Assembly (NCBI RefSeq): GCF_021545845.1
Contig: NZ_CP088923.1
Location: 2,914,001 to 2,978,000 of the forward strand
Direction of reading: 5' to 3'
Origin: Rhodanobacter thiooxydans
Lineage (GTDB): Bacteria; Pseudomonadota; Gammaproteobacteria; Xanthomonadales; Rhodanobacteraceae
Length of the DNA stretch: 64,000 nucleotides
This document shows, piece after piece, positions 5,979 to 30,386 of this stretch. Position 1 is the first letter of the stretch; the number at the start of each line of letters is the position of its first letter. The position numbers were made by a program, and so were the translations under genes. The notes under the pieces are model-generated. The model was not told the origin of the DNA and did not search any database. It worked only from the letters and a program-made list of their open reading frames with translations.

Positions 5979-7217
5979 ATGTTGAGCAGCATCCGCACCA
6001 CCGCACCGTTGTTGTCGAGCACCGTGTTCCTGTTGATGGGAGTCGGCCTGCTGCATACGCATATCGCGTTGCAGGGCGAGGCGCTGGGCTTCTCCGTCGC
6101 GATGATCGGAATCCTGACCTCGGCCTACTACACCGGCTTCCTGGTCGGTACCTACACGGTGCCGAAGCTCACGCACCGCTTCGGCCATATCCGCAGCTTC
6201 GCCTTCTGTACCTCGCTGGTGGCGGTGACCGCGCTGCTGCAGGCACTGACCCCGGCGTACGGGGCCTGGCTGGTGCTGCGGGTTCTGCAGGGGCTGCTGC
6301 TGGTCGGTCTGTACGCGATCATCGAGAGCTGGCTGAACACCGCCGCCGAGCCGAGGCACCGCAGCACGGTATTCGCCGTCTACATGATGCTGAACCTGGG
6401 TGCCAGCGCAGCGGCACAACAGTTCCTGCGCATCCGCGGCGAGGGCTTCGTGTTGTTCTGCGTGGTGGCGATCCTGTTCTGCCTCGCCAGCCTGCCGGTG
6501 GTCGTGACCCTGCAGCCGCAGCCGTCCCTGCGCGCGGCGCCGCGGGTCCAGGTGGGCCACATGTTCCGGCTGGTGCCTACCGCGCTGGTCAGCGCATTGA
6601 TATCGGGCATGGCGCTGGGTGCGTTCTGGGGCCTGCTGCCGCTGTACGCGGCCGCCCGCGGCCTGGGCACCGCCGCAGTCGGCACCTACATGAGCGTGGC
6701 CATCGCCGGCGGCGTGGCGCTGCAATTGCCGCTGGGGCACCTGTCCGACCGCATCGACCGGCGGCTCGCGCTAGCGCTGATCAGCGCCACCGCGGCACTG
6801 GTGGCGCTGGTCAACCTAGCATTGCCGACGGCCGGACAGACGGTCGCCATGCTGCTGGTGTTCGCCTTCGCCGGCATGAGCTTCGCGCTGTACCCGATCG
6901 CGGTGGCGCACCTGGTCGACTACCTGCGCCGCGACGATCTGCTCTCGGGGTCGAGCACGGTGCTGTTGGTCAACGGCATCGGTTCAGCGGTGGGGCCACT
7001 GCTGGCGGGCACACTGATGAGCCTGACGCAGCCGGCGTTCCTGTTCGCCTGGTTCGCGATCCTCGACGGCCTGCTGGCCGGCTATGCGCTGTACCGCTTC
7101 ATGCGCCGCAAACGCGAGGTGACCCCGGACGACAACTTCGTACCTTTGGTGCACACCACACCGGGCGCGATGGATCCGCATCCCGATGCGCCGGACCAGC
7201 CAGGCAAGCCGGCTTGA
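5979..7217 (+). CDS. MFS transporter, YcaD-like
   Basis: This 412-residue, 12-helix transporter begins MLSSIRTTAPLLSSTVFLLM. It contains the loop signature TVPKLTHRFGHIRSF between helices 2 and 3, the symmetrical second-half signature GHLSDRIDRRLAL, and GLYAIIESWLN, which is typical of YcaD-type MFS proteins. The C-terminal tail is hydrophilic and Pro-rich. The ATG at 5979 is the start of the first transmembrane helix; longer upstream frames overlap the divergent hydrolase promoter and are not membrane-like. Substrate unknown. Confidence 0.82.
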   Translation: MLSSIRTTAPLLSSTVFLLMGVGLLHTHIALQGEALGFSVAMIGILTSAYYTGFLVGTYTVPKLTHRFGHIRSFAFCTSLVAVTALLQALTPAYGAWLVLRVLQGLLLVGLYAIIESWLNTAAEPRHRSTVFAVYMMLNLGASAAAQQFLRIRGEGFVLFCVVAILFCLASLPVVVTLQPQPSLRAAPRVQVGHMFRLVPTALVSALISGMALGAFWGLLPLYAAARGLGTAAVGTYMSVAIAGGVALQLPLGHLSDRIDRRLALALISATAALVALVNLALPTAGQTVAMLLVFAFAGMSFALYPIAVAHLVDYLRRDDLLSGSSTVLLVNGIGSAVGPLLAGTLMSLTQPAFLFAWFAILDGLLAGYALYRFMRRKREVTPDDNFVPLVHTTPGAMDPHPDAPDQPGKPA

Positions 7218-7680: not shown

Positions 7681-7991
7681 GATCTTGCGGTAGGCACCCT
7701 ACAGCAGGCAGGCGGGCGGAGTCGAAGCGCCGCCAGGTGAGGGCCGCCCCCATCGCCGGCGTGTCCTTCGACTTCCTCGCTCCTCAGGACCGTGGCCATC
7801 CACGGCCACTCCCCGCGTGCGGCCTTCGGCCTACGCTCGGAGCCTGCCCCGGACTTGATCCGGGAACGAACGGGCTCAAGCAAGTGCCATTCAGCCACGT
7901 CCCCTTTGATTTCACCCGTACTTCCACATCCGCAAGAACGGCCATATATTTCCTGTTCCGCATTCCCGTCGATCCAGAAGTCCGTCCGCAC
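7681..7991. other. Intergenic region before alcohol dehydrogenase
   Basis: No gene is supported here. It contains a short inverted segment around 7846-7870 (CCCCGGACTTGATCCGGG), a motif often found in intergenic repeats, and presumably the promoter of the gene at 7992. No clear sigma-70 boxes were assigned. Confidence 0.35.
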
Positions 7992-9005
7992 ATGAAAGCC
8001 ATCCATCTTCGTCGCCCTTTCGGGTTGGAGCATCTCGAATACACCGACAGCGCGGATCCCGGCGCACCTGGTGCCGGTAAAATCCGCGTGCGGCTGCACG
8101 CCAGTTCCCTCAATTTTCATGACCTGGACGTGGTGCTGGGGCGGATGCCGGTAGAGGACGGTCGTATCCCCTTGTCCGATGGTGCCGGCGTGGTCGAAGC
8201 AGTCGGTGCCGATGTGCATGAGTTCGCCGTCGGCGATCACGTCGTTTCTACTTTCTATCCGCAATGGCTGGCCGGAGGCCCGGTCGCGGCCGGTTTCGCT
8301 GCAACCCCCGGCGACGGCATCGACGGTTATGCCCGCGAGGCGGTGGTGCGACCAGCTACGGCCTTCACCCATGCGCCGCGCGGGTACAGCCATGTGGAGG
8401 CGGCCACGCTGACCACCGCCGGGCTGACCGCCTGGCGCGCACTGGTGGTCGAAGGCGGCCTGAAAGTCGGCGACACCGTGCTGGCGCTGGGCACTGGCGG
8501 CGTGTCGATTTTTGCGCTGCAACTGGCGAAGGCCGCAGGCGCGACAGTGATCGTGACCTCATCCTCAGAGGAAAAGCTTGCCCGCGCCGCTGCGCTGGGT
8601 GCCGATTACGGCATCAACTACCGCCAGTACCCCGAATGGTCGAAGCAGGTGCTGAAGATCACCGGTGGCCGTGGCGTCGACCATGTCATCGAAGTGGGCG
8701 GCCCCGGCACGCTGACGCAGTCGATGCGTGCCACGCGTGTCGGCGGGCATATCGCACTGATCGGCGCTCTCACGGGCGTTGCCGATGTGGTGCCGACGGT
8801 CGAACTGATGCTGCGCCAACAGCGCGTCAGCGGCATCGGTGTCGGGAACCGCCAGCACCAGATCGCATTGGTGCGCGCCATTGAGGCTACCGGCATCCAT
8901 CCGGTAATCGACCGCAGTTTCGCGCTGCGCGATATGGCCGATGCGTTCCGGTTGCAACAAACCGGAGGCCATTTCGGAAAAATCGGCCTGGATTACGCGC
9001 TCTGA
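7992..9005 (+). CDS. Zinc-independent NAD(P)-dependent alcohol dehydrogenase (MDR family)
   Basis: The 337-residue protein has the GroES-like N-terminal domain (LHASSLNFHDLDVVLGRMP, SDGAGVVEAVG) and a Rossmann fold with the dinucleotide motif as ALGTGGVSIFALQLAKAAGA near residues 160-180. The structural and catalytic zinc cysteines of classical alcohol dehydrogenases are absent, so it belongs with quinone-oxidoreductase-like medium-chain reductases that reduce carbonyls or enones using NAD(P)H. The start MKAIHLRRPFG at 7992 is the normal N-terminus of the family. It stands alone on the plus strand, followed by a RAYT remnant. Confidence 0.88.
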   Translation: MKAIHLRRPFGLEHLEYTDSADPGAPGAGKIRVRLHASSLNFHDLDVVLGRMPVEDGRIPLSDGAGVVEAVGADVHEFAVGDHVVSTFYPQWLAGGPVAAGFAATPGDGIDGYAREAVVRPATAFTHAPRGYSHVEAATLTTAGLTAWRALVVEGGLKVGDTVLALGTGGVSIFALQLAKAAGATVIVTSSSEEKLARAAALGADYGINYRQYPEWSKQVLKITGGRGVDHVIEVGGPGTLTQSMRATRVGGHIALIGALTGVADVVPTVELMLRQQRVSGIGVGNRQHQIALVRAIEATGIHPVIDRSFALRDMADAFRLQQTGGHFGKIGLDYAL

Positions 9006-9076
9006 TGCCCTGAGCCGCACACCTGAGGATGCTCTGATCAAGTCTCCGCTCGTCATTCCAGCGAACGGGGCGCAAA

Positions 9077-9235: not shown

Positions 9236-9332
9236 CCCTCGGCGAGCGCAGCGAACATCTCCACCAGCCCATATCAGCCGAAGAAACGTCGAAGCAGAGC
9301 CCGACATGACAGGAGCGGCCAACAGCTCCCCG

Positions 9333-9410
9333 AATAATTATCTGATAATTAATTAATAATTAGTTAATAATTATCTGATAATTACGCAATATTTACTTGA
9401 TAATTAAAAT
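9333..9410 (+). promoter_or_regulatory. AT-rich operator-like palindrome array upstream of lasso precursor
   Basis: In otherwise GC-rich DNA, a nearly pure AT block holds two identical inverted repeats TAATTATC-T-GATAATTA at 9335-9351 and 9368-9384, spaced exactly 33 bp (about three helical turns). A third half-site GATAATTA lies at 9399-9406. The block ends about 60 bases before the precursor ATG. Spacing on one helix face suggests cooperative binding by a dimeric regulator. The promoter is presumably within or just after the array; I could not assign -35/-10 boxes with confidence. Confidence 0.7.
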
Positions 9411-9470
9411 ATCCGCCTCCTACGCTGCCTGCGTCATGGGACTGCCATGACGCAACCGCAGGAGACTGAG

Positions 9471-9620
9471 ATGGACACGAACGAGAACATCCGCAGCAAC
9501 GCGCAGGACGATGTCATCGAACTCGGCGTCGCCAGTGTCGAGACCAAGGGGCCTGGTGGCCCCACCGAATCGGGCGGCGGGCTCGGCAAGACCGTGATCC
9601 CTGGCATTTCCGAGGAGTAA
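9471..9620 (+). CDS. Lasso peptide precursor, predicted seven-residue ring (xanthomonin-like)
   Basis: The 49-residue product has a 26-residue leader (MDTNENIRSNAQDD, then VIELGVASVETK) with Thr at position -2 of the predicted cleavage, the hallmark recognised by lasso B proteins. The core would start at Gly27: ring GPGGPTE, closed between the Gly1 amine and the Glu7 side chain; tail SGGGLGKTVIPG; C-terminal ISEE. There is no Asp/Glu at core position 8 or 9, so only a seven-member ring is possible. The PG-ISEE ending and the ring size resemble the xanthomonins, whose ISEE-like tail is trimmed (recalled from the literature). Start at 9471 is supported by GGAG seven bases upstream; an in-frame ATG at 9447 has a poorer site. 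The maturation genes follow directly. Confidence 0.9.
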   Translation: MDTNENIRSNAQDDVIELGVASVETKGPGGPTESGGGLGKTVIPGISEE

Positions 9621-9628
9621 CCACTCCG

Positions 9629-9652
9629 GGGCGCACACCATGGTGTGCGCCC
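9629..9652 (+). terminator. Perfect palindrome between precursor and B gene (attenuator candidate)
   Basis: A perfect 24-base palindrome with arms GGGCGCACACCA and TGGTGTGCGCCC lies nine bases after the precursor stop and 18 bases before the B start. It is followed by TATT rather than a U-run. It would form a very stable hairpin in the transcript, and could lower read-through into B/C or protect the precursor mRNA 3' end, giving more precursor than enzyme. The function is inferred from position. Confidence 0.6.
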
Positions 9653-9670
9653 TATTCTGAGGAACGGGCG

Positions 9671-10357
9671 ATGCACTATCAGCTCAGGGAAAATCTCTCG
9701 TACTGTGAGGTCGACGGACAGCTGGTTTTTCTCGACGTCGCGCAAGATCGATACTTCAAGCTGACCGGCGCTCTCGAGAGGGCCATGCGACAGTTCCAGG
9801 CACATGAAGATGTCTCCCCCATGCTAGTGGAGGATCTTGCGGCCGCAAGGATATTGGTCGAGGCACCGAGCCCGAAAGCTCATACCGCAATAACGAGCAT
9901 CCGGCGCCCGACTTCCAGCGCGATCGAGCAACCCGCCACGACTGCGGGTCAACGAATCGATATGGCCATTGTCTTCGAAGTCATGGCGATCGTCTGGTCG
10001 ACCCGTCGCCAACTGAAGACCCGTGCACTCAAAACGAATCTCGACGAAGCCAGCGCATACCGCGACAGAAAAACAGGTGCACACGAGGTCGCTACGCCCA
10101 CCACTCCCGAAGACAACCTGCTCCAGGTAAACGGGCAATTCGCTCGTGCACGCTGCTATGTACCTATCGAGCCGATCTGCCTCCTGGATTCCTTGTCCCT
10201 GCTCTGGTTCCTTTCGCGGCGAGGGCTGTCGGCGAATATCGTTTTCGGCGTGACACCGGAGCCTTTCGCGGCGCATTGCTGGGTACAAGCCGGCGACATG
10301 GTCTTGAATGAAACACTCTTCGACGCTCATGCATACACTCCTATCAGGGTGGTCTGA
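9671..10357 (+). CDS. Lasso peptide B protein (RRE + transglutaminase-like leader peptidase fusion)
   Basis: The 228-residue protein fuses the two functions that are separate (B1, B2) in many Gram-positive clusters. Residues 1-65 resemble the PqqD-like RiPP recognition element (VDGQLVFLDVAQDRYFKLTG) that binds the leader. Residues about 150-228 form the papain/transglutaminase-like peptidase, with Cys170 in EPICLLDSLSLLWFLSRRG and His202 in PFAAHCWVQAG. It would remove the leader after the TK dipeptide, freeing Gly1 for cyclisation. Its stop overlaps the C-gene ATG by one base (TGATG), so the two are coupled. Confidence 0.9.
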   Translation: MHYQLRENLSYCEVDGQLVFLDVAQDRYFKLTGALERAMRQFQAHEDVSPMLVEDLAAARILVEAPSPKAHTAITSIRRPTSSAIEQPATTAGQRIDMAIVFEVMAIVWSTRRQLKTRALKTNLDEASAYRDRKTGAHEVATPTTPEDNLLQVNGQFARARCYVPIEPICLLDSLSLLWFLSRRGLSANIVFGVTPEPFAAHCWVQAGDMVLNETLFDAHAYTPIRVV

Positions 10358-12105
10358 TGAACTGCCGCTACATCATCCTGCTCGGCGGAAGATTGAACCG
10401 GAATGCTGACTACATGCCGCAGCTGGACACGCTCCTGCGCGCTGCGGGAATGACCTGCAAGCTTGAATCAGCGTCGGTCAGGGTCTTTGCTTCCACAGAT
10501 GCCCCTACCCTTGCAATACCCGGGCACGGTCTGCTTATTGGCCAGGTTTTCACCAAAGACGGCCAGCCCATCTCACAACCTCTGGATATCGATGGTTCGG
10601 CGCGCGAACTCGCCAGTCACCTGCTGCAAGACACTTGGGGCAACTATCTCGCCATTTTTTGCGACCGCGACAATATCCCGGCGATCACTCTGCTACGCGA
10701 CCCTTCTGGCGCTGTGCCATGCGTCTATTCGCTCGCCGATGGCGAAGGCTTCATTACATCGGACATCGGCCTTGCAGTCGACCTGGGACTCTATCGCAGG
10801 GAGGTAAACTGGCAGGCCATCGCACACGGCCTCACTTTTCCCTACCTCAAGACGACGCGTACGGCACTGCAGCGCGTCAGTGAATTGCTTCCAGGCGGCG
10901 TGCTGACTTACCTGGGAAGGGATGTTTCGGTTCGCTCCGCATGGTCGCCCTGGCGCTTCGTGGAAAGGGGCGTCCGGCACGAGGATCCTCGTGTGGCCGC
11001 CGAAGATGTCCGAGTTGCCGTATCCAGTGCGGCCAAGGCTTTAGCCGCGGGTGGCAATAGGTTTTTGGTCGAGCTGTCGGGTGGGCTGGACTCATCCATC
11101 GTTGCCACGTGCCTGCGCCATGCTTCGCTGCGCGCCACCTTTTGCACGCTTGTCATGCCCGTAGCCGGGACCGACGAGCGCCCATATGCCCGGTTGGTAA
11201 CGGAGGCATTGGGACAGGAACTCTTCTCGGTGGAAGTCGGGTTCGACAATGTCCACCTCGAATTTCCCGTGCCCCGCTCTTCCGTCTTGCCCGCGATCGG
11301 AATGCTACAACGCGTCATCAACGAAGCATGGGAAGCCGCAGGCAACCGATATGGCGTGGAAGACTTCTTTTCGGGTGCCGGTGGCGATACCGTCTTCTGC
11401 TACCTGAGGACCGCAGCGCCCGCCGCCGACGCGTTCCGGGAACGTGGCGTCATGGCAGGCATCACTGCCATCGCAGATCTAGCGGCCCTCCACCGATGCA
11501 CGGTCTTCAAGGCTGGCCGATTGACCCTCAAGAAAGTGCTGCGTCGGCCACGTGCGACCTGGAAAGAAGATCACACGCTGCTCAACCCAGCCTGTGCGGC
11601 CACAACGTCGGAACATCATCCCTGGATGGACGCACCGCCGGGCGCACTGCCCGGCGATCACGAGAAAATTCATGACCTGATCGGGAACCAGCTATTCAGG
11701 GATGCCGGACCACGCAGCCCGGAACGCTCCATGCATTTTCCATTACTGTCTCAACCGGTCATGGAGGCATGCCTCAAAGTCCCGACCTGGATGTGGATCG
11801 CCGACGGCCAGAATCGCGCCATCGCCCGCCAAGCCTTTGCCGATCGCCTGCCGCAAGCCATTCTCGATCGACGCAGCAAGGGCTCGTACACCGGCCACAT
11901 GGCTGGTGTCTACACGCGCAACAAGCTGAAGATTCGCGAGTTCCTCGAGGAGGGGCAGCTGTGCACACATGGCCTGCTCGACCGCCCTGCCTTGGCAAAT
12001 TTCTTCGCCAAGGACCTCGCCTCCAGGGACTTGTCGTTTCTTCGCATCTTCGACCTATGTACAGCCGAGAACTGGACACGTCAACAAGGTCACGATCCAT
12101 CGTGA
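10357..12105 (+). CDS. Lasso peptide cyclase (asparagine-synthetase-like C protein)
   Basis: The 582-residue protein is homologous to asparagine synthase B and lasso C proteins. An N-terminal glutaminase-like region without an N-terminal catalytic Cys is followed by the ATP-pyrophosphatase motif VELSGGLDSSIVAT at 238-251. It would adenylate the Glu7 side chain of the precursor and form the isopeptide bond with Gly1 while the tail is threaded. It is the third gene of the A-B-C operon. Its last 16 bases overlap the 3' end of the convergent isopeptidase gene. Length is usual for proteobacterial lasso cyclases. Confidence 0.92.
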   Translation: MNCRYIILLGGRLNRNADYMPQLDTLLRAAGMTCKLESASVRVFASTDAPTLAIPGHGLLIGQVFTKDGQPISQPLDIDGSARELASHLLQDTWGNYLAIFCDRDNIPAITLLRDPSGAVPCVYSLADGEGFITSDIGLAVDLGLYRREVNWQAIAHGLTFPYLKTTRTALQRVSELLPGGVLTYLGRDVSVRSAWSPWRFVERGVRHEDPRVAAEDVRVAVSSAAKALAAGGNRFLVELSGGLDSSIVATCLRHASLRATFCTLVMPVAGTDERPYARLVTEALGQELFSVEVGFDNVHLEFPVPRSSVLPAIGMLQRVINEAWEAAGNRYGVEDFFSGAGGDTVFCYLRTAAPAADAFRERGVMAGITAIADLAALHRCTVFKAGRLTLKKVLRRPRATWKEDHTLLNPACAATTSEHHPWMDAPPGALPGDHEKIHDLIGNQLFRDAGPRSPERSMHFPLLSQPVMEACLKVPTWMWIADGQNRAIARQAFADRLPQAILDRRSKGSYTGHMAGVYTRNKLKIREFLEEGQLCTHGLLDRPALANFFAKDLASRDLSFLRIFDLCTAENWTRQQGHDPS

Positions 12106-14309
12106 GATCCCGCATCAAAACGACGTTCTGCGGCCTTCTTCATTTCAAGCCAGATGCGATATTGCCCTACTTTTTCCGGACTTGGATCTTCATATCCCTG
12201 CAACCAGAAGCGGAACCAGTCAACGTTGCGTTCGTACACCGCCAGCTTGTGTCGTGGCTGGTACTTGATATGAGTCTCGTGCGGGAACACGTACATATCC
12301 CCCTGATGCCTCCGCATCAGAGGTATCGCATAGTCCAGGGTCACCCGGTATTCCTTCTCGGGCAGCTGGAATAGAACCGGCGCCTTGATCCTGTCGAGTT
12401 GATACGCGGGCGATGCCTCCTTCCATCGTTCAGGCGTTTCGCTCGGCGCGCCAAGTTGCCACACTTTCCGAAAGGTAGAACGAAAAGCATCTCGCAAGCT
12501 GTTGAACAGGTAATAGGTCGGTGTCACCGAAACACCACTAATGGATGCGGTGCTCACCGCATCCGAATGCGCCAACGTCCACAACGTCGCTTCGCTGCCA
12601 TAGCTGAGTCCGCCCATGCCAACACGTGTCCGATCGATGCGCCCTTCAGCGGACAGGAGCTTCACGACACCTTCGACGGCTGCACGTCCCTGGTCGTAAC
12701 CGTCAATGGCGTCAGGGTGTGCCTCCGGATTCGTGTTGATGCACAGCGCCGAGATACCATTCTCGGCCAGGGTGGCAAGTGGCCACTCATTACCCACCCC
12801 ACCGCGTAGAAAGCCATAGCAGTCATAGAACGTCACGAACAACGGCGGTGCATGATCGGCACTCGCTCCTCGCGCTTCGAAGAGTTGGCCGGTGAACTCC
12901 CTTCCCTGCGCATCCTTCCAACGGATCAGTTCCGCCGGCACCGTTGCCGCAATATCCGCGTCCAACCCCTTGTTCGGCGCGAACAGGATTCGCCGATAAT
13001 CGCTCTTCACATCGATCGCCTCAAGACGTGGCGGATGATCGGCTTCCGCAGCCACACAGACCAATGTATCGGACGACAGCGCACAGGGGATGTCCCAGTA
13101 GCGCTGGCTCCCGCTGATAAGCCCATCGGAAAACACGATCGGTCGCACCACGCTCGTTACGACATTCCATCCGTAAAGGGACTGCGTATGTCCCTTGTTA
13201 TAGTCGTCGGTGGTGAACAGGACCTCGTCACTCCCGGGGCGCCACTGAATATCTGTGATGTCTTTGTGGCGACACATCTCGGCCGTACAGTAGATCGGGT
13301 GCGACGTATGCCTTTCCGGCAGCATGGCCAACTCGTCATGCTGACTTAAAGACGGCCCTTTGCCCTTGCGTCCAGGCAACAGCACCGCTATGCGTCCATC
13401 GCCAGGATTCTGGGTTATCTGGTAGCGCTGCGGCCGCAGGCCGTCCCAGATCTTGACCGGCGCCGCCGGCAAATCGGGCGAAAGATCGGCCGGCGTCAAC
13501 CAGCGCACCGGATGCTCCGATATGGGCAGGGCCCGGGTTGCCATCGTTGTCAGGTCGACGGCCTTCCAGCAGTCTGGCACTTTTGCCAGCAGGGGCCCGG
13601 TCGAGGCCCACCCCTCTAGGTATCGCCGCGTGGTCGGCTGCCCATTGAGTACGCTCTGCCGAAACAGTCCAGCGGCAATATCCACGGTGTCATCGATGCG
13701 GATACCGTGATCGTACTCAGACTCTTCCGCATCGATGACCGCTTTCCGCGTGGCGCCGACACTGTACATCAGTGTTTTACCATCGTTGCTCAACGCAAAG
13801 TCCCGCACGTCCGCCGGATCCGACGTCACCGCGTAAGCTCCGGACCCAACCGTCGCCGCACGCCAGACAGAGACACGGCCATTGAAGATCGCGCGATAGT
13901 AGATCCACTTTCCATCCGGCGACCAGACGGCTGGCGATGGCAGCACTGTTCCATTGACGTACTGGAACAACGGCACGCCTCCATCCGCTACCCGGAGCGG
14001 CGGGGCTTTCCCATCCAAGCTCTGTACATACCACGTAGTGTCATACGTGTTGCGCTCAACCGATGCGCGCTCGGATCGGAAAGCCACGTACCGCCCATCG
14101 GGTGAGATCACCGGGTTGCCCAAGTCGATCACCTCCAGTAGGCGTCGCGGCGAAATCGTCTCCGCGTGCGACTGCCCGACGATAGCCATGCCAAGTACAA
14201 CAAGTGCAAGCGCCAAAATCCAATATGTACTGTGCTTCCTGGCCGAGAAATCCAGACGCATGCGTGCCGTCACGGCCGCCCACGCGGCCGAATGATGGAA
14301 AAGTTCCAT
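12090..14309 (-). CDS. Lasso peptide isopeptidase (prolyl-oligopeptidase family, AtxE2-like)
   Basis: The 739-residue protein has an N-terminal membrane/signal segment (YWILALALVVLGMAIVGQSHA), a WD40/beta-propeller-like region (VISPDGRYVAF, WSPDGKWIYY) and a C-terminal S9-type hydrolase. The nucleophile is Ser569 in GGLSYGSEA; the base is probably His680 in FPHETHIKY; an acidic residue near 651-653 (LPEKEYR) replaces the usual Asp position, as in lasso isopeptidases. These enzymes open the macrolactam of the cognate threaded peptide, suggesting the peptide is imported and degraded. GGGAGG sits before the ATG at 14309. It lies 10 bases downstream of the receptor gene on the same strand. Confidence 0.85.
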   Translation of the reverse strand: MELFHHSAAWAAVTARMRLDFSARKHSTYWILALALVVLGMAIVGQSHAETISPRRLLEVIDLGNPVISPDGRYVAFRSERASVERNTYDTTWYVQSLDGKAPPLRVADGGVPLFQYVNGTVLPSPAVWSPDGKWIYYRAIFNGRVSVWRAATVGSGAYAVTSDPADVRDFALSNDGKTLMYSVGATRKAVIDAEESEYDHGIRIDDTVDIAAGLFRQSVLNGQPTTRRYLEGWASTGPLLAKVPDCWKAVDLTTMATRALPISEHPVRWLTPADLSPDLPAAPVKIWDGLRPQRYQITQNPGDGRIAVLLPGRKGKGPSLSQHDELAMLPERHTSHPIYCTAEMCRHKDITDIQWRPGSDEVLFTTDDYNKGHTQSLYGWNVVTSVVRPIVFSDGLISGSQRYWDIPCALSSDTLVCVAAEADHPPRLEAIDVKSDYRRILFAPNKGLDADIAATVPAELIRWKDAQGREFTGQLFEARGASADHAPPLFVTFYDCYGFLRGGVGNEWPLATLAENGISALCINTNPEAHPDAIDGYDQGRAAVEGVVKLLSAEGRIDRTRVGMGGLSYGSEATLWTLAHSDAVSTASISGVSVTPTYYLFNSLRDAFRSTFRKVWQLGAPSETPERWKEASPAYQLDRIKAPVLFQLPEKEYRVTLDYAIPLMRRHQGDMYVFPHETHIKYQPRHKLAVYERNVDWFRFWLQGYEDPSPEKVGQYRIWLEMKKAAERRFDAGSHDGS

Positions 14310-14319
14310 GTTGCCTCCC

Positions 14320-16950
14320 CTACCAGTGCTTGGAAATCGAAACGCTGACGAAGCGTCCGATCGCCGAGTAGTTGGTGGCGTCATACGGCACGTAGGTCGC
14401 CACCGCCGCGGTATAAAGCGGAGGCGCGCGATTCAGCAGGTTCTGTACCACCAGCTCGAACGTCATGCCCGAAAAAGCACCAGTACGTTCGCCAGTGTTG
14501 TAGTTGATCGTGGTGTCGAGCGTGGTGAACGACGCGGTCTTCTCCGGCATCGGCGCAAAACCGTTGGTCACGCCGCCGGTGTAGTTGACGAAGCCCGAAG
14601 CGCTGACGCCTCCCGATGTCCACACTGCGCCGACACGGCCATTGAGCCGGGCCGGATTGAAGACGGTGCCCGCGAGCTTTTGTTCGGGCTGTCCGGCACC
14701 GGTCGTCTGCGTACTGTCAAGCCAACTGGTCGATCCGCGCACTGTCAGCCGACCATCGCCGAAATCGAAGCGGTACGACCCGGACAGATCAAGCCCCTTG
14801 ATCCGCTGTCGTGCAGCGTTCACATACTGGTCGCGAACAATCGCCACCACCTTGCTGGCATCGTAGGGCGCTCCGGCATAGTTGTAGAAGTTGCTGCCAT
14901 AGGTGGCGAGAAGCTCCTGAATCTGCTCCCGCGTTGGCGACCGATCCACAAAGTCTACATAGGCCGGATTGCTCAGCGCCTGCTGGTAGGCGACCGGCTG
15001 AACCACGCGGTCGGTGTAGTCGATGTCGAACCAGGTTAGCTCGGCATCCAGACCCGGCAGTGACTCCGGATGCAATGCCAGCGAAGTCGTCCAGGTCCGT
15101 GCCCGCTCCGCACGCAGGTCGGTGGTGTTGCCGCCGGAAGACAACAATACAGTGGCGTCGGTTGGGCTACCACTGGCACCCACTGCAGAGGCACTGAACA
15201 GATAGGCATACTTGTTGCCGTAGCGCTGCAGCAGTGTCGGAGCCTTGAACGACTTTCCCCAAGAGGCCTTGAGTGTGAAGTCCGAGGTGGGGTCGTAGAT
15301 CACCCCCAATTTCGGCGTGGTCACTCGGCCAAAGCTGTCGTAATCCTCGCCGCGCATTGCTGCACTGAATTCCAGACGATGGACACCCGCGATGCCCGAG
15401 GATGGCGAAACGAACGGGAAATCAAGTTCGGTATATGCGAACCCAGCACGTTGATCGCCACCATAGGAGCTGCCGGAAACCTTCGACACGACCCGGAACT
15501 TGTTTTTTCGCGACCCGGCTCCGACAGCCAGACGCGTCTCCCCTCCGCCCATCGGGAACAGTGGGCCTTCGGCGCCGACCTCCCAGGAACGACTTTCGTT
15601 GCAGTAGCAGCTCTGTGAAAGACTGTTCTCCGCTACCGACACGAAATGGTCCTCATTGGCAGTATTGTCCTTACCGTACGTTCCGCCGAGCGTGATGGAC
15701 CAGTCATGCCGAAGAAAGAACTCGATACTTGGCGACACCAGCGTGATCGACGTCTCCGGGTTGTAGCGGTAGTAGGAATCTGTCGACGTCCCGAGATACT
15801 GCGTCACAGCGCGCTTGGTTCTGAGCGCGTCAAGCCGCAATTCGGCTACGTCGCCCAACGACTGATGAACGATCATAAGACCGCTGTGCGATTCGCTGCC
15901 CGGGTAGATCGTATACGGGTCGATCAGGTACTTGGTGTAACTGCGCTGGCGCGCATAGATGGGATCGACGTCGGCACCCTTGAACGTTGCGATCAATCCA
16001 CCGCCGGCCCAGGTGGTGCCGGCGGTCGCGGTGTACTCGCGCGTCGCCAGCCCACCTTCGGTCGCATTGCCATAGCGCGCACGCACGGTAACTCCGTCGA
16101 AGTCGGACTTCATGATCACGTTGGCCACACCACCCACCGCATCAGAGCCGTAGATCGCCGACGCACCGTCAGGGACGATTTCCAGGCGATCGATCGCCTC
16201 TGCGGGGATGGCGCTGATATCCACGGCCTGGGAATACCCGTCGTAGGCCAGCCGGCGACCGTTGAGCAGCGTCAACGATGCGTCGGCGCCCAGTCCGCGC
16301 AGGTTCAAGGCGGAGCCGCCAGTGGTGTCGCCAAGGCCGCTGGCAACGCCCATGACACCTGGGTTCTGCCCGCCATTGAAGTTCTGCGGCACGCTACGAA
16401 TCACCTGACCCAGATCGGTGAAACCTTCCTGCTGGATCTGCTCGCTGCCGATGGTGATGACTGGCGATGGCGTGCTGCCGCCGCGGATACGCGTTCCCGT
16501 AACCTGTACGCTTTCCAAGTTCGTGGCGGCGGGTACCGAATGTGTTGCGCTTGATGTAGTGACCGTGGAGTCTGCCGCCCTCGCCTGTCCGGCCGCACGT
16601 CGGATGGCCACAGTCCGGCTGTCGAGCATTTCGTACTCCAGGCCCGACTCTTCGAGCAGCTGGGTCAGCGCCTCGCGCCAGTTCATGCGGCCGTGCACCG
16701 CCCTGCCCTGCTTGCCCACGACCAGCGCAGATGGATAGTCCACCTGCAGGCCGCTTTGTGTGCGGAGCGCGTCGAGAGCGGTGGCAAGTTTGCCAGCTGG
16801 CAGATCGAAGTTGCGTGCAGCATCCGCTGTCGGCGCCACCTGCGCAGTAGCGGTATACAACGGCAGCAGTGGCGCCAACACGGCAGCGAGGGTGCCTCGC
16901 ACCAACATGATCCTGAAGCTGCGTAACGGTATCTGCCGTGTTCGGACCAT
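14320..16950 (-). CDS. TonB-dependent receptor with N-terminal STN domain (lasso-locus receptor)
   Basis: From MVRTRQIPLRSF at 16950 the protein has 876 residues: a signal peptide (MLVRGTLAAVLAPLLPLYTATAQ), a secretin/TonB short N-terminal domain (FDLPAGKLATALDALRTQSG to RTVAIRR), a plug (VQVTGTRIRGG; GLGADASLTLLNGRRLAYDG) and a 22-strand-type barrel ending VSVSISKHW. STN domains often signal to an anti-sigma factor, but no fecI/fecR pair is nearby. Position next to the isopeptidase, as in related lasso loci, suggests it imports the lasso peptide or its metal complex. The start is uncertain; 16908 is an alternative. Confidence 0.85.
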   Translation of the reverse strand: MVRTRQIPLRSFRIMLVRGTLAAVLAPLLPLYTATAQVAPTADAARNFDLPAGKLATALDALRTQSGLQVDYPSALVVGKQGRAVHGRMNWREALTQLLEESGLEYEMLDSRTVAIRRAAGQARAADSTVTTSSATHSVPAATNLESVQVTGTRIRGGSTPSPVITIGSEQIQQEGFTDLGQVIRSVPQNFNGGQNPGVMGVASGLGDTTGGSALNLRGLGADASLTLLNGRRLAYDGYSQAVDISAIPAEAIDRLEIVPDGASAIYGSDAVGGVANVIMKSDFDGVTVRARYGNATEGGLATREYTATAGTTWAGGGLIATFKGADVDPIYARQRSYTKYLIDPYTIYPGSESHSGLMIVHQSLGDVAELRLDALRTKRAVTQYLGTSTDSYYRYNPETSITLVSPSIEFFLRHDWSITLGGTYGKDNTANEDHFVSVAENSLSQSCYCNESRSWEVGAEGPLFPMGGGETRLAVGAGSRKNKFRVVSKVSGSSYGGDQRAGFAYTELDFPFVSPSSGIAGVHRLEFSAAMRGEDYDSFGRVTTPKLGVIYDPTSDFTLKASWGKSFKAPTLLQRYGNKYAYLFSASAVGASGSPTDATVLLSSGGNTTDLRAERARTWTTSLALHPESLPGLDAELTWFDIDYTDRVVQPVAYQQALSNPAYVDFVDRSPTREQIQELLATYGSNFYNYAGAPYDASKVVAIVRDQYVNAARQRIKGLDLSGSYRFDFGDGRLTVRGSTSWLDSTQTTGAGQPEQKLAGTVFNPARLNGRVGAVWTSGGVSASGFVNYTGGVTNGFAPMPEKTASFTTLDTTINYNTGERTGAFSGMTFELVVQNLLNRAPPLYTAAVATYVPYDATNYSAIGRFVSVSISKHW

Positions 16951-17249
16951 GCCTGTGGTCTGCAGCACCGCTTCGCGGCTGCTACGGCCATGCGGCATGA
17001 CTTTCGCGCCGCGTCCTGCAAGCTCCAACGCACAGACCCAGTTCATCCCCTTGGTTGGGTCGGCCACTACAGTCCCCTTATCTTTCAACATGAAATGTCT
17101 CCGATTGGTGGTCGTCCCCTTGGCCGACCTGTGAGAGATGTGTCCTGCCAGGCATCCCGCTTGCTCCTGGTAGTTCCCCGATAAGTAAAGGCGTGCACGC
17201 CATGCCCGGCTTGGCTCCGTCAGCAAATAGGCGCCCCACGCGAGGGATC
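16951..17249. other. Region upstream of receptor gene
   Basis: About 300 bases upstream of the chosen receptor start. The receptor frame stays open to 17226 (including MLKDKGTVV near 17091), so a longer N-terminus is formally possible, but these residues do not look like part of the protein. It probably carries the receptor promoter and leader. Confidence 0.35.
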
Positions 17250-17291
17250 ATATCTGAATTTCAGATATTTGAAAACCGGATATAGGTTGGG
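17250..17291 (+). promoter_or_regulatory. Inverted repeat and conserved upstream block of first XRE gene
   Basis: An inverted repeat ATATCTGA-ATT-TCAGATAT at 17250-17268 is followed by a block reaching GGATATAGGTTGGG at 17278-17291. The block from TTCAGATA onward recurs before the second XRE gene at 17631-17662. It sits between the divergent receptor and XRE genes and is a good candidate operator for XRE autoregulation. Confidence 0.6.
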
Positions 17292-17317
17292 GACGGCCTA
17301 CCATCTGAGTCGCCGTG

Positions 17318-17587
17318 ATGCCTCCCAAATCGATCCACAAAGCTGAGTACAAAGTGCTGCAGGGGCTGCTACGCGAGATGCGCATCAAAGCCCACCCAAA
17401 CCAGGCCGATTTGGCCGCACTGCTGGGGAGAAAGCAGTCATATGTCAGCGACGTCGAACGCGGTTCCCGAAGGATGGATCTGCTCCAACTACGCGACTTC
17501 TGCTTGGCGTGCGACCAGGACTTGGTCGGCTTTGTAAGACGGTTTGAGGAAAAGATCGCTGGCGGGCCTAACCGAGTCGCCCTTTAG
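17318..17587 (+). CDS. Small XRE-family HTH regulator (copy 1)
   Basis: The 89-residue protein is essentially one helix-turn-helix: LREMRIKAHPNQADLAALLGRKQSYVSDVERGSRRMD at residues 17-53, with recognition helix KQSYVSDVERG. A conserved tail follows (LLQLRDFCLACDQDLVGFVRRFEEKI). Start at ATG 17318; a GTG directly in front could also serve. It is a paralogue of the next gene. In copy 1 the HTH has His-Pro-Asn where copy 2 has Gly-Leu-Lys, a divergent turn residue that could alter binding. It is divergent from the TonB receptor gene and may regulate the lasso locus (inference). Confidence 0.85.
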   Translation: MPPKSIHKAEYKVLQGLLREMRIKAHPNQADLAALLGRKQSYVSDVERGSRRMDLLQLRDFCLACDQDLVGFVRRFEEKIAGGPNRVAL

Positions 17588-17630
17588 AAGAGAGCGGATC
17601 ACCAACATATCCGCTCATGAACATCCGTTT

Positions 17631-17662
17631 TTCAGATACCGAAAAACTGGATATAGGGTGGG
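17631..17662 (+). promoter_or_regulatory. Duplicated upstream block of second XRE gene
   Basis: TTCAGATACC...GGATATAGGGTGGG repeats the block found upstream of the first XRE gene with few differences, showing that gene and control region were duplicated together. Only the right half-site TCAGATA is kept here; the left arm is not. Confidence 0.55.
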
Positions 17663-17688
17663 CGTGGCCTTCCAGTTATGACGCCGCA

Positions 17689-17970
17689 ATGCCCCCGAAG
17701 TCGATCCACAAACCCGAGTACCAGACGCTGCTCGAACTGCTAATCGAAGTCCGGAACAAGGCTGGTCTGAAGCAGGCCGAACTGGCCTCGTTGTTGGATC
17801 GATCACAGTCCTATATCAGCGACGTCGAACGCGGTGGACGACGGCTGGACCTGCTGCAACTGCGCGAATATTGCCAAGCCTGCGATCAAGACCTGGTTGG
17901 CTTTGTAAAACGGTTCGAGAAGTCGATTGCTGGTCGCGGACCAAGTTCAGCAGGCCGGGCCTCTCGCTAA
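17689..17970 (+). CDS. Small XRE-family HTH regulator (copy 2)
   Basis: The 93-residue protein starts MPPKSIHKPEYQTLLELL (17689) and shares most residues with copy 1. HTH: VRNKAGLKQAELASLLDRSQSYISDVERG, with canonical GLKQAELA spacing. The conserved tail LLQLREYCQACDQDLVGFVKRFEKSI follows, then a short Arg/Ser-rich end. The family is common as single copies in Xanthomonadales. Tandem duplication including the upstream block gives two related repressor-like proteins with possibly overlapping sites. Confidence 0.85.
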   Translation: MPPKSIHKPEYQTLLELLIEVRNKAGLKQAELASLLDRSQSYISDVERGGRRLDLLQLREYCQACDQDLVGFVKRFEKSIAGRGPSSAGRASR

Positions 17971-18364
17971 CGGGAGCGGCTCAAGAACAGGGCACGTTGG
18001 CTTACCTACCAAGAAGTGAGTCTGATCTGTCTTGGAGACAGATGCCTTCACGGTCGTCGCCGTCACCTCTATCGAGTACGAACCATCACATCGCTGCGAA
18101 CATCAGCCGTCTACAAAGACCTACGACTGAACCAGCCAACGTGATCCCTCGGACGCGCGTACCGCGGCTTGAACGTCGCGCTACCAGCATTTCCGTCGAT
18201 GGTCTTGAGCGGCTACTCAAGTCTTGGAGGGTGGGCATCACCGATGCTTCTGCAGATGTCCGAACATGGAAAGCGGTGAGCTATTGAAGAGGCTAGCTTG
18301 TCTACACCAACCTACTTTGGCCGAGCGCAGCAATGTCCGACCCCACCGGTTGCAAGCGCCTACA
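17971..18364. other. Gene-free stretch before IS630 element
   Basis: No convincing coding sequence, RNA or repeat was seen in these roughly 390 bases. A plus-strand frame to 18287 is open but has no family resemblance and no ribosome site. Confidence 0.4.
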
Positions 18365-18366: not shown

Positions 18367-19495
18367 CTAAGGCGAACATAAGTAAGCGAACATTTTCGCT
18401 TCGTCGCTGTCCAAGGATAGGATGTCGATGAGGAGAGGGAAATGCGCGCTACCGATGGTCGAAAGTTGTCCCACGAGACGCTGGAGGCGATGCGCCTTCG
18501 GGCGGTCGAGGCGGTGGAATCCGGGGAGTCGCCGGAAACCGTGATCCGGACGCTTGGGCTGTCGCGGCCACGTATTTATGAGTGGCTGGCCGCCTTCCGT
18601 GAGGGCGGGCTGGAGGCGCTGCGAGCCAAGCCCATCAGCGGACGGCCGCGCAAACTCGACGAGCGTGCCATGCGCTGGATTCATGCAACGGTGACCACGA
18701 AGAACCCGCAACAGCTGAAGTTCGAATTTGCGTTGTGGACACGGGCGATGGTGCGTGACCTGATCGCCCGGCGGTTCAAGGTTCGTCTGTCCGAGGTATC
18801 GGTCGGACGCCTGTTGCGCGAACTGGGCCTGTCGCCGCAACGACCGCTGGCGCGTGCCTACCAACGCGACCCGGCACGCGTTGAAGCCTGGCTGCATGAG
18901 GAATATCCAGCGATCCGCAAGGAAGCCAAGCGCGCCAAGGCGCAGGTGTTCTTTGCCGATGAGGCCAGTGTGCGCTCGGACTACCACAGCGGCACGACGT
19001 GGGCACCGCTCGGGCAAACGCCCACCGTGGAGCGGACGGGCGCGCGTTTCACCCTGAATTTCATTTCGGCGGTCAGCCCGCGGGGTGAGCTGCGGTTTGC
19101 CTGTTGCCCAGGCACCCTGACGACCGCCAAGTTCATCGACTTCCTCAAGCGGCTCATGGTCCATCGCGATGCGCCCGTCTTCCTTGTCGTCGATGGCCAT
19201 CCGGTGCACCGTTCACGCGCCGTGAAGCAGTTCGTCGCCGGTACTCAAGGGCAATTGCGCTTGTTCCAGTTACCGCCTTACAGCCCGGATCTGAATCCGG
19301 ACGAGTTGGTGTGGAATCACCTCAAACGCCACAAGCTTGGTCGTTTGGCCTTGAGCGGGCCGGACCACCTCAAGCGTCATGCCATGGCTTTCCTGCGCGC
19401 CCTGCAGAAACAACCGGCCTTGGTGCGCGGCTTCTTTCAACACCCCACCGTCCGCTATGCCGCCTGATATGTTCGGATACTTTCTTTCGGCTTAG
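18367..19495 (+). mobile_element. IS630-family insertion sequence
   Basis: The element is 1129 bp. Its imperfect terminal inverted repeats begin CTAAGGCGAACATAAGTA on the left and, read inward, CTAAGCCGAAAGAAAGTA on the right, both continuing to CGAACAT. It is bounded on each side by a TA dinucleotide (18365-18366 and 19496-19497), the target duplication expected for IS630/Tc1. A single intact transposase fills the interior. Confidence 0.9.
18442..19467 (+). CDS. IS630-family transposase
   Basis: The 341-residue transposase has an N-terminal HTH pair ([53 protein letters not shown]) and a C-terminal DDE integrase core: [12 protein letters not shown] (first Asp), [11 protein letters not shown] (second Asp), and [18 protein letters not shown] (Glu). 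The catalytic residues and full length are kept, so it is probably active. It is followed within 30 bases by the right terminal repeat. Confidence 0.92.
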
Positions 19496-19543
19496 TAACA
19501 TCGATCCAGCCACTGATATTCGCGACGGCCAAGCTGCGGGAAC

Positions 19544-19756
19544 ATGGCAGCCATGGAAAAGCATATCGACATGGATAGCCCGCTCTCCCGGGCCTATTGG
19601 TGCGGCAACTTCACCTGCAGTGATGCAGAGTTGGCCAACGCAGTGCGCATCATGGACAGCACTGCAGTAGGCCTTGTCGGGCTGTACCTGGTCACACGTC
19701 AATCCGAATCCTGTGCCATCGATCAGCTCGACATGCCGTGGATCGATATTGGGTAA
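19544..19756 (+). CDS. Small protein, DUF3606-like
   Basis: The 70-residue product contains SRAYWCGNFTCSDAELANAVRIMDSTAVGLVGLYL when read across residues 15-50. This resembles the short DUF3606 fold (tryptophan-turn, then SxxELxxAVxxVGxSxxxVxxYL). The function of DUF3606 proteins is unknown. The start may be 19544 or the ATG at 19553; no strong ribosome site is visible. It sits just right of the IS630 element and may be cut at its N-terminus by that insertion. Confidence 0.45.
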   Translation: MAAMEKHIDMDSPLSRAYWCGNFTCSDAELANAVRIMDSTAVGLVGLYLVTRQSESCAIDQLDMPWIDIG

Positions 19757-19829
19757 CTGGCGAAGAACAGATCAGGCTCACTTCCTCAGCGGAATCATGT
19801 GACTAACCTCGATCTTGCGCTGCGCCTCG

Positions 19830-19950
19830 TGCGCCTGCGGAGCGTGGCTCAAACAAGGCATCGGCGACGAGGGGCTGATCGCGTCCGACCACACGGCAGA
19901 CCACCGAAACCACCCGAAACCACCCGAAACCAAGGCTAAATGAACCTAAC
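19830..19950 (+). mobile_element. 3' remnant of a RAYT element
   Basis: The plus strand encodes an Arg/Pro-rich tail (RHRRRGADRVRPHGRPPKPP, then a few residues and a stop at 19935) like the C-terminus of RAYT transposases. It is followed at once by AAATGAACCTAACCCC, a near match to the right terminal repeat of the intact element at 22311. A 10-bp tandem repeat (CCGAAACCAC) lies within 19901-19931. Only this end of the element remains. Confidence 0.5.
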
Positions 19951-19965
19951 CCCTTTCTGTTCTTA

Positions 19966-21003
19966 CTATGGAAGCACCGCCTCGAAGGCCTTGGCTGCAA
20001 CTTGCTCATTGAACCGGATTTCTCCCGGCTTATCCAGGCGCTGGAGCACCCAGTATTTATCCACGACCTTGGGGGCATAGATTTCTAGCTCGTTGCCGTT
20101 GCTAGTCGCATTGCGAAGTACGCACACCCGATACCTCGAATGGTGCTCCTGGAGCCGTAGGTATTCATTCGGCGTCAACTCAAACTGAATAACATTGCCG
20201 ATATGCCCCTTCACCTCGACATACAGAACCTCTTTGCCCTTCCTGACTTCAATATCCCACCCACGGTTATCCCGCTCGACCGATTTCACCGCGTAGCCCT
20301 GCTGCTTGTAGTGCTTTTCTGCCAAAGCAACAGCGGCCTGCTCGATCTGAGTGACTAGGTCCTTGTTCGGTTTGCTCCACTTGCCTCCACGCTTACCTTG
20401 GGTGGGGTTTACACGCGTACCTGTTGATCCACCTATGTACTTTCGGAGCCGATCTACAATTCGCAGGGCCTCCGGATTGCCTTCATCCGGGTACCACACG
20501 TTCGACTGACCTATAAACCCCTTGCCGTGCGGCACACGAAAATCGCGATCCCTCTCTTGCACAAGGAGGGCATCGTCGGCATCCACTTCGCAAAGGTAGT
20601 CCAGACCTGCCCAGTCGCCCATCTTCGGTCGCCCGCGGCGCTTTCGATAGGCTTTGTGGAAGACCGTGGCATTCCGGTACCAGCCAATCACCACTTGACC
20701 ACCATCGGGATGCTTCGCGATATAGACGATGTCGACGCCCGGCAGCGACTCGTTCTCTCTCCACTTCTGTGTGGGATCGATCCTCTTGAGATTGATACCA
20801 GCGAAGCGCTTCTTCTTGGCGTACTTCCGGGTGATGTCTTTCGTCATCACGAAGCCATAGCAGCGCCCGGCTTCATAGCGAAAGTTCCACATCTCGCCAC
20901 CTTCGCCGTTCTCCTCGACGTAGGCACCGCCGCCAACGATCTCGTCGATCCCATCGTAGGTCTTCATGTAGCCCACGCGAAACACCAGCAACGGATTAGC
21001 CAT
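19966..21003 (-). CDS. DUF3883 (NOV-type) protein with PD-(D/E)XK-like C-terminal domain
   Basis: The 345-residue protein has an N-terminal half of unknown fold (MANPLLVFRVGYMKTYDGI..., GRCYGFVMTKDITRKYAKKK) and a C-terminal DUF3883-like domain: AEKHYKQQGYAVKSVERDNRGWDIEV, then LYVEVKGHIGN. The G-WD...E-VK arrangement is the nuclease-like active site (Asp and Glu-x-Lys) of Mrr-type endonucleases. DUF3883 domains are common in restriction and anti-phage genes. No methylase or helicase is adjacent on this strand. Start at 21003 is the first Met giving the hydrophobic MANPLLVF; the upstream site is G-rich. Function is inferred only. Confidence 0.65.
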   Translation of the reverse strand: MANPLLVFRVGYMKTYDGIDEIVGGGAYVEENGEGGEMWNFRYEAGRCYGFVMTKDITRKYAKKKRFAGINLKRIDPTQKWRENESLPGVDIVYIAKHPDGGQVVIGWYRNATVFHKAYRKRRGRPKMGDWAGLDYLCEVDADDALLVQERDRDFRVPHGKGFIGQSNVWYPDEGNPEALRIVDRLRKYIGGSTGTRVNPTQGKRGGKWSKPNKDLVTQIEQAAVALAEKHYKQQGYAVKSVERDNRGWDIEVRKGKEVLYVEVKGHIGNVIQFELTPNEYLRLQEHHSRYRVCVLRNATSNGNELEIYAPKVVDKYWVLQRLDKPGEIRFNEQVAAKAFEAVLP

Positions 21004-21336
21004 TCGAACGCCCCCCGAGTAGCACCTAATCAAAAAGCCAAGCATCCAAAACAGTGGTCAGAGTAGACATTTCGACATACTCAGCGCCACGTCCTTCTCC
21101 GGCCACACCGGGCACAACGCTTCCACTGCCTCCATCAACTCCACCCAATCGGAAAGATCTCCTCTCCCCGGCAGCGAACCCGGCACGACATAGCCCCCAG
21201 CCGGCGGTTCGGCCACTCTGCCAGGATGCTTCGTCGGCAACTTGGGCAAAGCGTTCACCAAGCCATCCCCCCGCTGAACTATTCGCGTACCTCAGCCATG
21301 TTGCTGCCTGCGCGCCAAGTAGGCAAGCCGGGGAAA

Positions 21337-21483
21337 AAGGTGTCAGGGACAATGTGGCCGCCGCGGTGGTCTGCCGAGTGTCCGAACTGTGGCGAAACGT
21401 CCTGTCCTTGCCTCGACCCATGCGCGGAATCGATCCATGCCCAGCACCTTCTGTTGCTGCAGGTAGTCGCGAATCTCAACGCA
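21337..21483 (-). mobile_element. C-terminal remnant of a second RAYT transposase (minus strand)
   Basis: Read on the minus strand, this piece encodes EIRDYLQQQKVLGMDRFRAW, then VEARTGRFATVRTLGRPPR and a stop. This is the typical C-terminus of a RAYT (LG-x-RF, basic GRP tail). The stop is followed by a GTCCCTGACACC-like end sequence near 21337. It abuts the left end of the intact RAYT and is in the opposite direction, so one element inserted beside or into another. Confidence 0.6.
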
Positions 21484-21486
21484 AGG

Positions 21487-22325: not shown

Positions 22326-22326
22326 G

Positions 22327-30155: not shown

Positions 30156-30221
30156 GGCAACTCCGGACATCGTGTGCTTGAACCAGTCAATTCTAGTGGA
30201 TCGACGGCAGTCACGCGGAAT

Positions 30222-30386
30222 TGGCCCCCTCTCCCTTTGGCGACCGTAGGGAGTCCCTTTGCGGTGAGGGGGCTGGGGTGAGGGTACGGGGGGCACCGAA
30301 GTTGAAGACCGCGCAGGATTCGGCACTTCGCTCCGCGCGCACCCTCATCCGCCCTCCGGGCACCTTCTCCCAAAGGAGAAGGGATG
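30222..30386. repeat. Intergenic repeat, same family as the one in icmF
   Basis: Between icmF and the hydrolase gene: CCCCTCTCCCTTTGGCGACC, AGGGAGTCCCTTTGCGGTGA, GGGGCTGGGGTGAGGGT, then a second arm with CCCTCATCCGCC and CTTCTCCC/GGAGAAGGG. This is homologous to the icmF insertion and shares arms with the 127-bp array at 2.5 kb. Confidence 0.8.

What the first reader, a model, noticed from the sequence alone, without database searches (positions are those of the whole stretch)
9471..12105. Lasso peptide locus with a predicted seven-residue macrolactam ring
The 49-residue precursor has Thr at -2, a core starting GPGGPTE and no acidic residue at core 8 or 9, so only a Gly1-Glu7 ring can form. 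Seven-residue rings are the smallest known and rare. The core has an exceptionally Gly-rich tail start (SGGG) with no bulky residue next to the ring, so what plug keeps the tail threaded is unclear (candidates: Lys, Ile or the Val-Ile-Pro region).
Basis: partly seen in the sequence, partly recalled or inferred. Interest (0 to 1): 0.75.

Follow-up and report, generated by a model that had tools for sequence, protein, structure and literature searches.

The report
Seven-residue-ring lasso peptide gene cluster
A Rhodanobacter-type bacterium carries a complete gene set for a small knotted peptide with a predicted very small ring; this ring size proves to be the usual one in its family, while the gene set itself exists twice in the genome and this copy seems to have lost its own regulator gene.

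Summary
Window 9471-9620 encodes a 49-aa lasso precursor (PF24178, NF033522), followed by B and C and, convergent, an AtxE2-type isopeptidase and a TonB-dependent receptor. In the core GPGGPTESGGGLGKTVIPGISEE the only acid in positions 1-10 is Glu7, so Gly1-Glu7 is the only standard ring.

"Rare" does not hold in this family: 106 of 129 distinct homologous cores have Glu7 and no acid at 8 or 9. Forty-two of them are long (21-22, some 23 aa), mostly with a Gly-rich loop; the window's is the most Gly-rich. Column composition favours Val16/Ile17 over Lys14 as the steric lock. I file it as a new member of the xanthomonin-like class II lasso peptides.

Less expected: the genome holds a second, 84% identical cluster. 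The window copy lacks the GntR gene present in 36 of 36 related loci but keeps a promoter palindrome whose exact 19-base form occurs in this genome only at the two precursors. Its receptor has an STN domain that its nearest sister clusters lack, apparently through recombination. Product, threading, plug and regulation are unproven.

The parts
9238..9267 (+). Remnant matching the last ~10 codons of the sister cluster's GntR gene; the rest of that gene is absent
   Evidence: blastn match window 9238-16503 to L003 8453-15707, where the GntR stop lies at 8480-8482; end coordinate by arithmetic
9335..9411 (+). AT-rich array, seven 11-base units by eye; function unknown
   Evidence: Tandem repeat finder: period 11 at 9333-9384 and period 33 at 9333-9406; units printed; TAATTATCTGATAATTA exact only here in the genome
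9397..9426 (+). Candidate promoter by eye: TTGATA, 18 bases, TACGCT
   Evidence: read and from the conserved upstream stretches; not among the three sites of the consensus scan, so weak
9430..9454 (+). Palindrome TGCGTCATGG-GACTG-CCATGACGCA: GntR operator or 5'-UTR hairpin
9471..9548 (+). Leader peptide, 26 codons
9549..9620 (+). Core peptide GPGGPTESGGGLGKTVIPGISEE and stop; predicted Gly1-Glu7 ring
9671..10357 (+). B protein, leader peptidase (228 aa)
   Evidence: PF13471 and NF033537
10357..12105 (+). C protein, lasso cyclase (582 aa), SGGLDSS loop present
   Evidence: PF00733; NCBIfam cyclase models below cut-off
12090..14384 (-). Lasso peptide isopeptidase, AtxE2 family; signal-peptide-like start read by eye
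   Evidence: NF033523 620.5 bits, cut-off 400; AtxE2 5txc E 6.1e-43
14320..17226 (-). TonB-dependent receptor with STN domain (about 16594-16749); true start probably near 16908
   Evidence: PF00593, PF07715, PF07660
17315..17970 (+). Pair of XRE-type regulator genes flanking the site (membership in the system unproven)
   Evidence: HTH_3/HTH_31; shared flank with lasso loci L063, L064, L072

Best explanation
A complete cluster for a class II lasso peptide of the xanthomonin/benenodin kind. B removes the leader after Thr-Lys; C activates the Glu7 side chain and joins it to Gly1 around the pre-threaded tail, giving a 7-residue ring (23 ring atoms by my count). With nothing bulky near the ring, the narrow ring is probably locked on Val16/Ile17 before Pro18-Gly19. 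No dedicated ABC exporter was found; the peptide probably re-enters through the TonB-dependent receptor and is opened by the isopeptidase, perhaps in the periplasm, as part of a scavenging or signalling loop rather than as an antibiotic. This copy lost its GntR gene and is probably governed in trans by the GntR of the sister cluster. Shown: gene set, homology, family-wide Glu7, second cluster, absence of GntR, receptor difference. Inferred: every biochemical step, threading, plug, localisation, uptake and regulation.
For: Family matches of A, B, isopeptidase and receptor above curated cut-offs; AtxE2 alignment keeps the GLSxG serine and the His and Glu stretches (that these form the triad is recalled). 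106 of 129 distinct cores with Glu7 and no acid at 8/9. Second cluster, 84% over 7.3 kb, dN/dS 0.19-0.41 for the five genes, so both copies look constrained. Val16 and Ile17 columns Val-sized or larger in 34 and 31 of 39 anchored long cores. GntR in 36 of 36 related loci, not in the window; one copy in the genome. Palindrome in 33 of 35 distinct loci.
Against: No product data. C is below NCBIfam's cyclase cut-offs. The lock columns are not absolute: Ala/Ser/Pro/Thr occur at the Val16 column in 5 of 39, and Gly, Pro or Thr at the Ile17 column in 8 of 39. The palindrome's spacer varies from 1 to 6 bases, unusual for a dimer operator. The receptor has an STN domain but no FecR was found in the genome, so a FecIR-type signal path is not complete.
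Confidence: 0.8

Rival explanations
1. The product is a branched-cyclic, unthreaded or easily unthreading peptide, because the Gly-rich loop puts nothing bulky next to the ring.
For: Positions 8-11 are S-G-G-G, the extreme of 106 cores; some larger-ring lasso peptides unthread on heating (PMC13352647, passages).
Against: Bulky residues are kept at the Val16/Ile17 columns; a cognate isopeptidase is present, and a review says that this enzyme takes only threaded peptides (PMC13352647, passages); xanthomonins are listed as stable at 95 C for 8 h (PMC7549694, passages).
Confidence: 0.12
2. The peptide is an antibiotic of the microcin type.
For: Relatives are often listed as bacteriocins (PMC9062649, passages).
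Against: No ABC transporter among 22 window proteins scanned with Pfam around the cluster (four of them had no family match); a review states that isopeptidase-type lasso peptides other than astexin-1 lack antimicrobial activity (PMC9266682, passages).
Confidence: 0.1
3. The palindrome is a 5'-UTR RNA hairpin (mRNA stability or translation control), not a GntR operator, so the loss of gntR says nothing about control in trans.
For: RNA fold of 54 nt: -21.3 kcal/mol, z -3.35; 12 of 33 rows have G-U at one pair, 13 cells changed on both sides (1 of 500 shuffles as high), spacer 1 to 6 bases; 24 of 35 loci have it exactly 37 nt before the ATG.
Against: Arms also covary in a DNA palindrome; number of pairs with double change not above shuffles (61 of 500 as high); a GntR gene accompanies the cluster in 36 of 36 related loci; Rfam has no convincing match.
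Confidence: 0.4
4. The window copy is a degenerating duplicate, no longer expressed.
For: GntR gene lost, left flank replaced by a copied dehydrogenase gene, IS-type transposase genes to the right.
Against: All five genes open; dN/dS 0.19-0.41; promoter region kept.
Confidence: 0.15

Closest known systems
Xanthomonins I-III (Xanthomonas; original paper not held, so known here only through other papers and recall)
   Same: Seven-residue ring; class II; isopeptidase-free structure known for xanthomonin I lacking 4 tail residues (PMC13352647, passages). Cores in the set resemble recalled xanthomonin I, e.g. GGPLAGEEIGGTHALGISEE.
   Different: The window core is 23 aa with a Gly-rich positions 8-13 stretch and no bulky residue at 8-11; xanthomonin I has Ile9 (recalled). 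The short cores here usually have a bulky residue at about position 9 (50 of 62).
Predicted lasso peptide of Stenotrophomonas acidaminiphila ZAC14D2_NAIMI4_2
   Same: Leader ...LGVASVETQ, core ending PVPGISEE, predicted 7-residue ring (PMC4675943, whole text)
   Different: 20-aa core GILQGNEPMGGEPVPGISEE; also only predicted
Benenodin/astexin-type clusters with isopeptidase (Asticcacaulis)
   Same: A-B-C plus convergent isopeptidase and TonB-dependent receptor, GntR upstream (PMC9266682, passages; L027, L028)
   Different: Benenodin-1 has an 8-residue ring (PMC13352647, passages); window copy has no GntR gene and no FecR in the genome
Sister cluster in the same genome (L003, C1:3864652)
   Same: 83.7% over 7.3 kb; C 90%, B 79%, isopeptidase 78%, receptor 78%; also a Glu7 core
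   Different: 9 of 23 core residues differ; GntR present, receptor without STN

Membership tests
Class II lasso peptide | Precursor with Thr at -2, small N-terminal core residue, Glu/Asp at core 7-9, no Cys | tested here: met
   Sequence
Class II lasso peptide | B peptidase and C asparagine-synthase-like cyclase next to the precursor | tested here: met
   C is below NCBIfam's lasso cyclase cut-offs
Class II lasso peptide | Isopeptide-closed ring threaded by the tail | not testable with these tools
   Needs expression, MS, NMR
Seven-residue-ring (xanthomonin-like) lasso peptide | Ring acid at core position 7, none at 8 or 9 | tested here: met
   ring itself not observed
Isopeptidase-type lasso cluster | AtxE2-family isopeptidase convergent with C | tested here: met
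   NF033523 620.5 bits, cut-off 400; AtxE2
Isopeptidase-type lasso cluster | TonB-dependent receptor beside the isopeptidase | tested here: met
Isopeptidase-type lasso cluster | GntR-like regulator before the precursor gene (PMC9266682) | tested here: not met
   Absent from the 64-kb window at tblastn E 1e-5; present in the sister cluster
Isopeptidase-type lasso cluster | Sigma/anti-sigma pair downstream (PMC9266682) | tested here: not met
   FecR: 0 matches in the own genome; FecI-type sigma factor not searched

The most novel reading that the evidence does not exclude
Long Gly-x-Gly cores with Glu7 are a distinct, undescribed class of seven-residue-ring lasso peptides whose narrow ring is locked only by a bulky pair far down the tail, leaving an unusually long, loose loop; and lasso clusters at one chromosomal site are swapped and recombined, leaving here a regulator-less copy run in trans by the sister cluster's GntR through a conserved palindrome.
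Probability: 0.3. Interest if true: 0.6.

Novelty: new member of a known kind. Interest (0 to 1): 0.38.

Why it matters
Seven-residue rings are treated as exceptional, yet in the homologs sampled here they are the majority form, in at least two core classes, so ring size and lock can be studied by comparison. Two similar clusters in one genome, one without its regulator, and a palindrome that only they share exactly, would make the control and role of isopeptidase-type lasso peptides, called enigmatic in a review (PMC9266682, passages), directly testable.

Tried and rejected
Lys14 as the family-wide plug: rejected, its column is Gly in 10 of 37 aligned long cores; it may still serve in this one peptide.

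Solved relatives of the core: 0 matches. The query was 22 residues (it lacked Gly1) and the library leaves out chains under 20 residues, so a 16-residue xanthomonin chain could not appear.

Ring size following the cyclase: the quick tree of 36 C proteins shows no clustering of 7 against 8 beyond shuffles (6 changes for the 28 rows labelled 7, shuffled mean 6.6, 172 of 500 as low). Two loci with acids at both 7 and 8 (L018, L069) entered as a third state through my script, and L026 had no label, so this count is weak. Seven of the eight loci with a C gene and a Glu7 core of 21 aa or more form one starred group; L012 lies outside it.

A long-core class defined by length alone: rejected for the same reason; L012-type cores (GPGVGIELAGPGQQ...) are long but of another lineage.

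Palindrome as a known RNA: Rfam gave only HgcC, 14.6 bits against a gathering score of 50. Alignment and pair count used 33 of 35 distinct loci; L016 and L025 were left out before the count. The 135 of 20000 random stretches with the palindrome include draws that overlap the real sites, so they overstate the background.

One Pfam scan (window 5990-7214) was out of frame and empty; repeated in frame (MFS transporter).

Age of the left flank: the dehydrogenase stretch 7917-9017 has a 97% copy at C1:1.195 Mb and no match at E 1e-100 in the other 44 genomes of the genus held; which copy is older is open.

Full report
What is there. The window is C1:2914001-2978000 of a 4.2-Mb genome in two contigs. 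The genus is Rhodanobacter by inference: several of the closest named proteins are from Rhodanobacter, and the contig of genome G001, same genus, has the length of the R. denitrificans contig behind P0078 (4225490). At 9471-9620 stands a 49-aa precursor with leader MDTNENIRSNAQDDVIELGVASVETK and core GPGGPTESGGGLGKTVIPGISEE, followed by B and C; convergent with C are an AtxE2-type isopeptidase and a TonB-dependent receptor with an STN domain. The isopeptidase begins with a signal-peptide-like stretch (by eye), so it may act in the periplasm. Among 22 window proteins scanned with Pfam none is an ABC transporter; two are MFS transporters, four had no match.

Ring size. The single-sequence search gave 42 precursors at E 0.01. 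The profile search gave 1075, of which only the best 120 are listed and could be used. With these and the precursors read from loci, and leaving out P0125, which my motif missed (acids at 7 and 8), there were 129 distinct cores: 106 with an acid at 7 and none at 8 or 9, 15 with it at 8 and not at 7 or 9, and 8 with other combinations; all 106 have Glu; in 97 Glu7 is the only acid in positions 1-10. The listing favours near relatives of the query, so this share describes this family, not lasso peptides at large. In the genus, 19 of 45 genomes have a precursor match at E 0.001.

Core classes and plug. Of the 106, 64 cores have 20 aa or fewer and 42 have 21-23. Anchored on the Gly of GIS, short cores have a Val-sized or larger residue at -7 (about position 9) in 50 of 62; long cores have Gly at position 10 in 40 of 42 and at 12 in 36 of 42. 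In the long cores the Val16 column is Val-sized or larger in 34 of 39, the Ile17 column in 31 of 39, the Lys14 column in 21 of 37 with Gly in 10; three long cores could not be anchored. The Ile of GIS is Ile or Leu in 39 of 39, but xanthomonin I is reported as a lasso structure lacking 4 tail residues (PMC13352647, passages), so I favour Val16/Ile17. This rests on composition alone.

The second cluster. A 76% identical precursor lies at C1:3864652 in a complete cluster; blastn gives one 7.3-kb match at 83.7% (window 9238-16503 to L003 8453-15707). The two C proteins are sisters (starred branch). dN/dS is 0.33 (A), 0.41 (B), 0.21 (C), 0.21 (isopeptidase) and 0.19 (receptor); dS runs from 0.24 (C) to 0.67 (receptor), which suggests patchwork exchange rather than one clean duplication.

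Regulator and promoter. The sister cluster is preceded by a GntR gene. A relative is found at tblastn E 1e-5 in 36 of 36 related loci (some species may be held twice), and in 20 of the 25 loci it ends within 1 kb of the precursor; the 64-kb window has none beyond a stretch matching its last codons. The genome has one such gene. A palindrome TCATGG/CCATGG-N-CCATGA/G stands upstream of the precursor in 33 of 35 distinct loci, in 24 exactly 37 nt before the ATG that I chose; 135 of 20000 random 120-base stretches of the same loci hold one. In this genome the exact 19-base form occurs at the two lasso precursors only; three places have 2 mismatches, and the reversed control pattern gave 6 matches at that level. 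A GntR operator is the simplest reading. A 5'-UTR hairpin is a real alternative, because the spacer varies from 1 to 6 bases and one stem pair is G-U in 12 of 33 rows. A review states that isopeptidase clusters have a GntR gene before the precursor (PMC9266682, passages). The search for lasso peptide, isopeptidase and GntR together listed 2 papers, of which I saw passages of that review only; I found no mention of the palindrome, which is a weak statement.

Site and recombination. The right flank is shared with lasso loci of other genomes: 17250-17972 with L063, 17205-18364 with L064, 16949-18288 with L072, and 19497-19743 (19667 for L072, 19502-19725 for L064) with these and L065; one search places the XRE-type gene next to the lasso loci of G001, G007 and G013. 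In L064 and L072 the two pieces are nearly adjacent, so the IS-type transposase gene at 18442-19467 is an insertion in the window. L063 and L064 carry long-core clusters whose receptors lack STN; L072 carries a short-core cluster with STN. The window follows the long-core clusters up to about 16503-16534 and the L072 type beyond. My reading: different lasso clusters alternate at this site, and the window is a recombinant within the receptor gene. STN was found in 8 of 36 related loci and in 0 of the 5 members of the window's C group whose receptor lies in the stretch held. FecR, the usual partner of STN (recalled), gave 0 matches in this genome, against 32 of 45 genomes of the genus.

Function. 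No role is settled in the passages that I saw: cargo release like a siderophore's, or control of peptide level, is proposed (PMC9266682), and a Sphingomonas mutant in the B gene of such a cluster lost phenanthrene use (PMC11006600, passages). I favour an uptake-and-opening loop; this is inference.

Is it in print? Paper searches for words of the core found nothing relevant (1 unrelated paper), and Rhodanobacter with lasso peptide gave 4 papers, of which I saw passages of two; neither passage names this core. One names lasso clusters in two Rhodanobacter species without cores. Mining tables in supplements could not be read.

Verdict. The ring is ordinary for its family; the core is a new, particularly Gly-rich member. 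The lost regulator, shared palindrome and recombined receptor are the less expected part.

Noticed in passing
window 9335-9411: AT-rich array of 11-base units upstream of the precursor, longer than the corresponding stretch in the sister cluster; an 11-base spacing recalls OmpR/PhoB-type binding sites (recalled).
   Followed up: partly
window 7917-9017: Zinc-type dehydrogenase gene with a 97% identical copy at C1:1.195 Mb of the same genome, sitting where the GntR gene would be expected.
   Followed up: partly
window 18442-23508: Three transposase genes (DDE_3 type, IS200-like, DDE_Tnp_1) and, at 19966-21045 and 23939-26467, genes with NO VEIN C-terminal and helicase/ResIII domains: a mobile, possibly defence-related stretch.
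   Followed up: no
L022 and L026: Short contigs labelled Paenibacillus dendritiformis hold pieces of a Lysobacterales-like lasso cluster; perhaps contamination of that assembly.
   Followed up: no
L010 7119-7451, L011 17453-17707: Relatives (55-65% identity) of the window's XRE-type pair also lie near lasso clusters of two Luteimonas genomes.
   Followed up: no
window 26553-30326: Methylmalonyl-CoA mutase fused to a MeaB-type GTPase and B12-binding domain.
   Followed up: no
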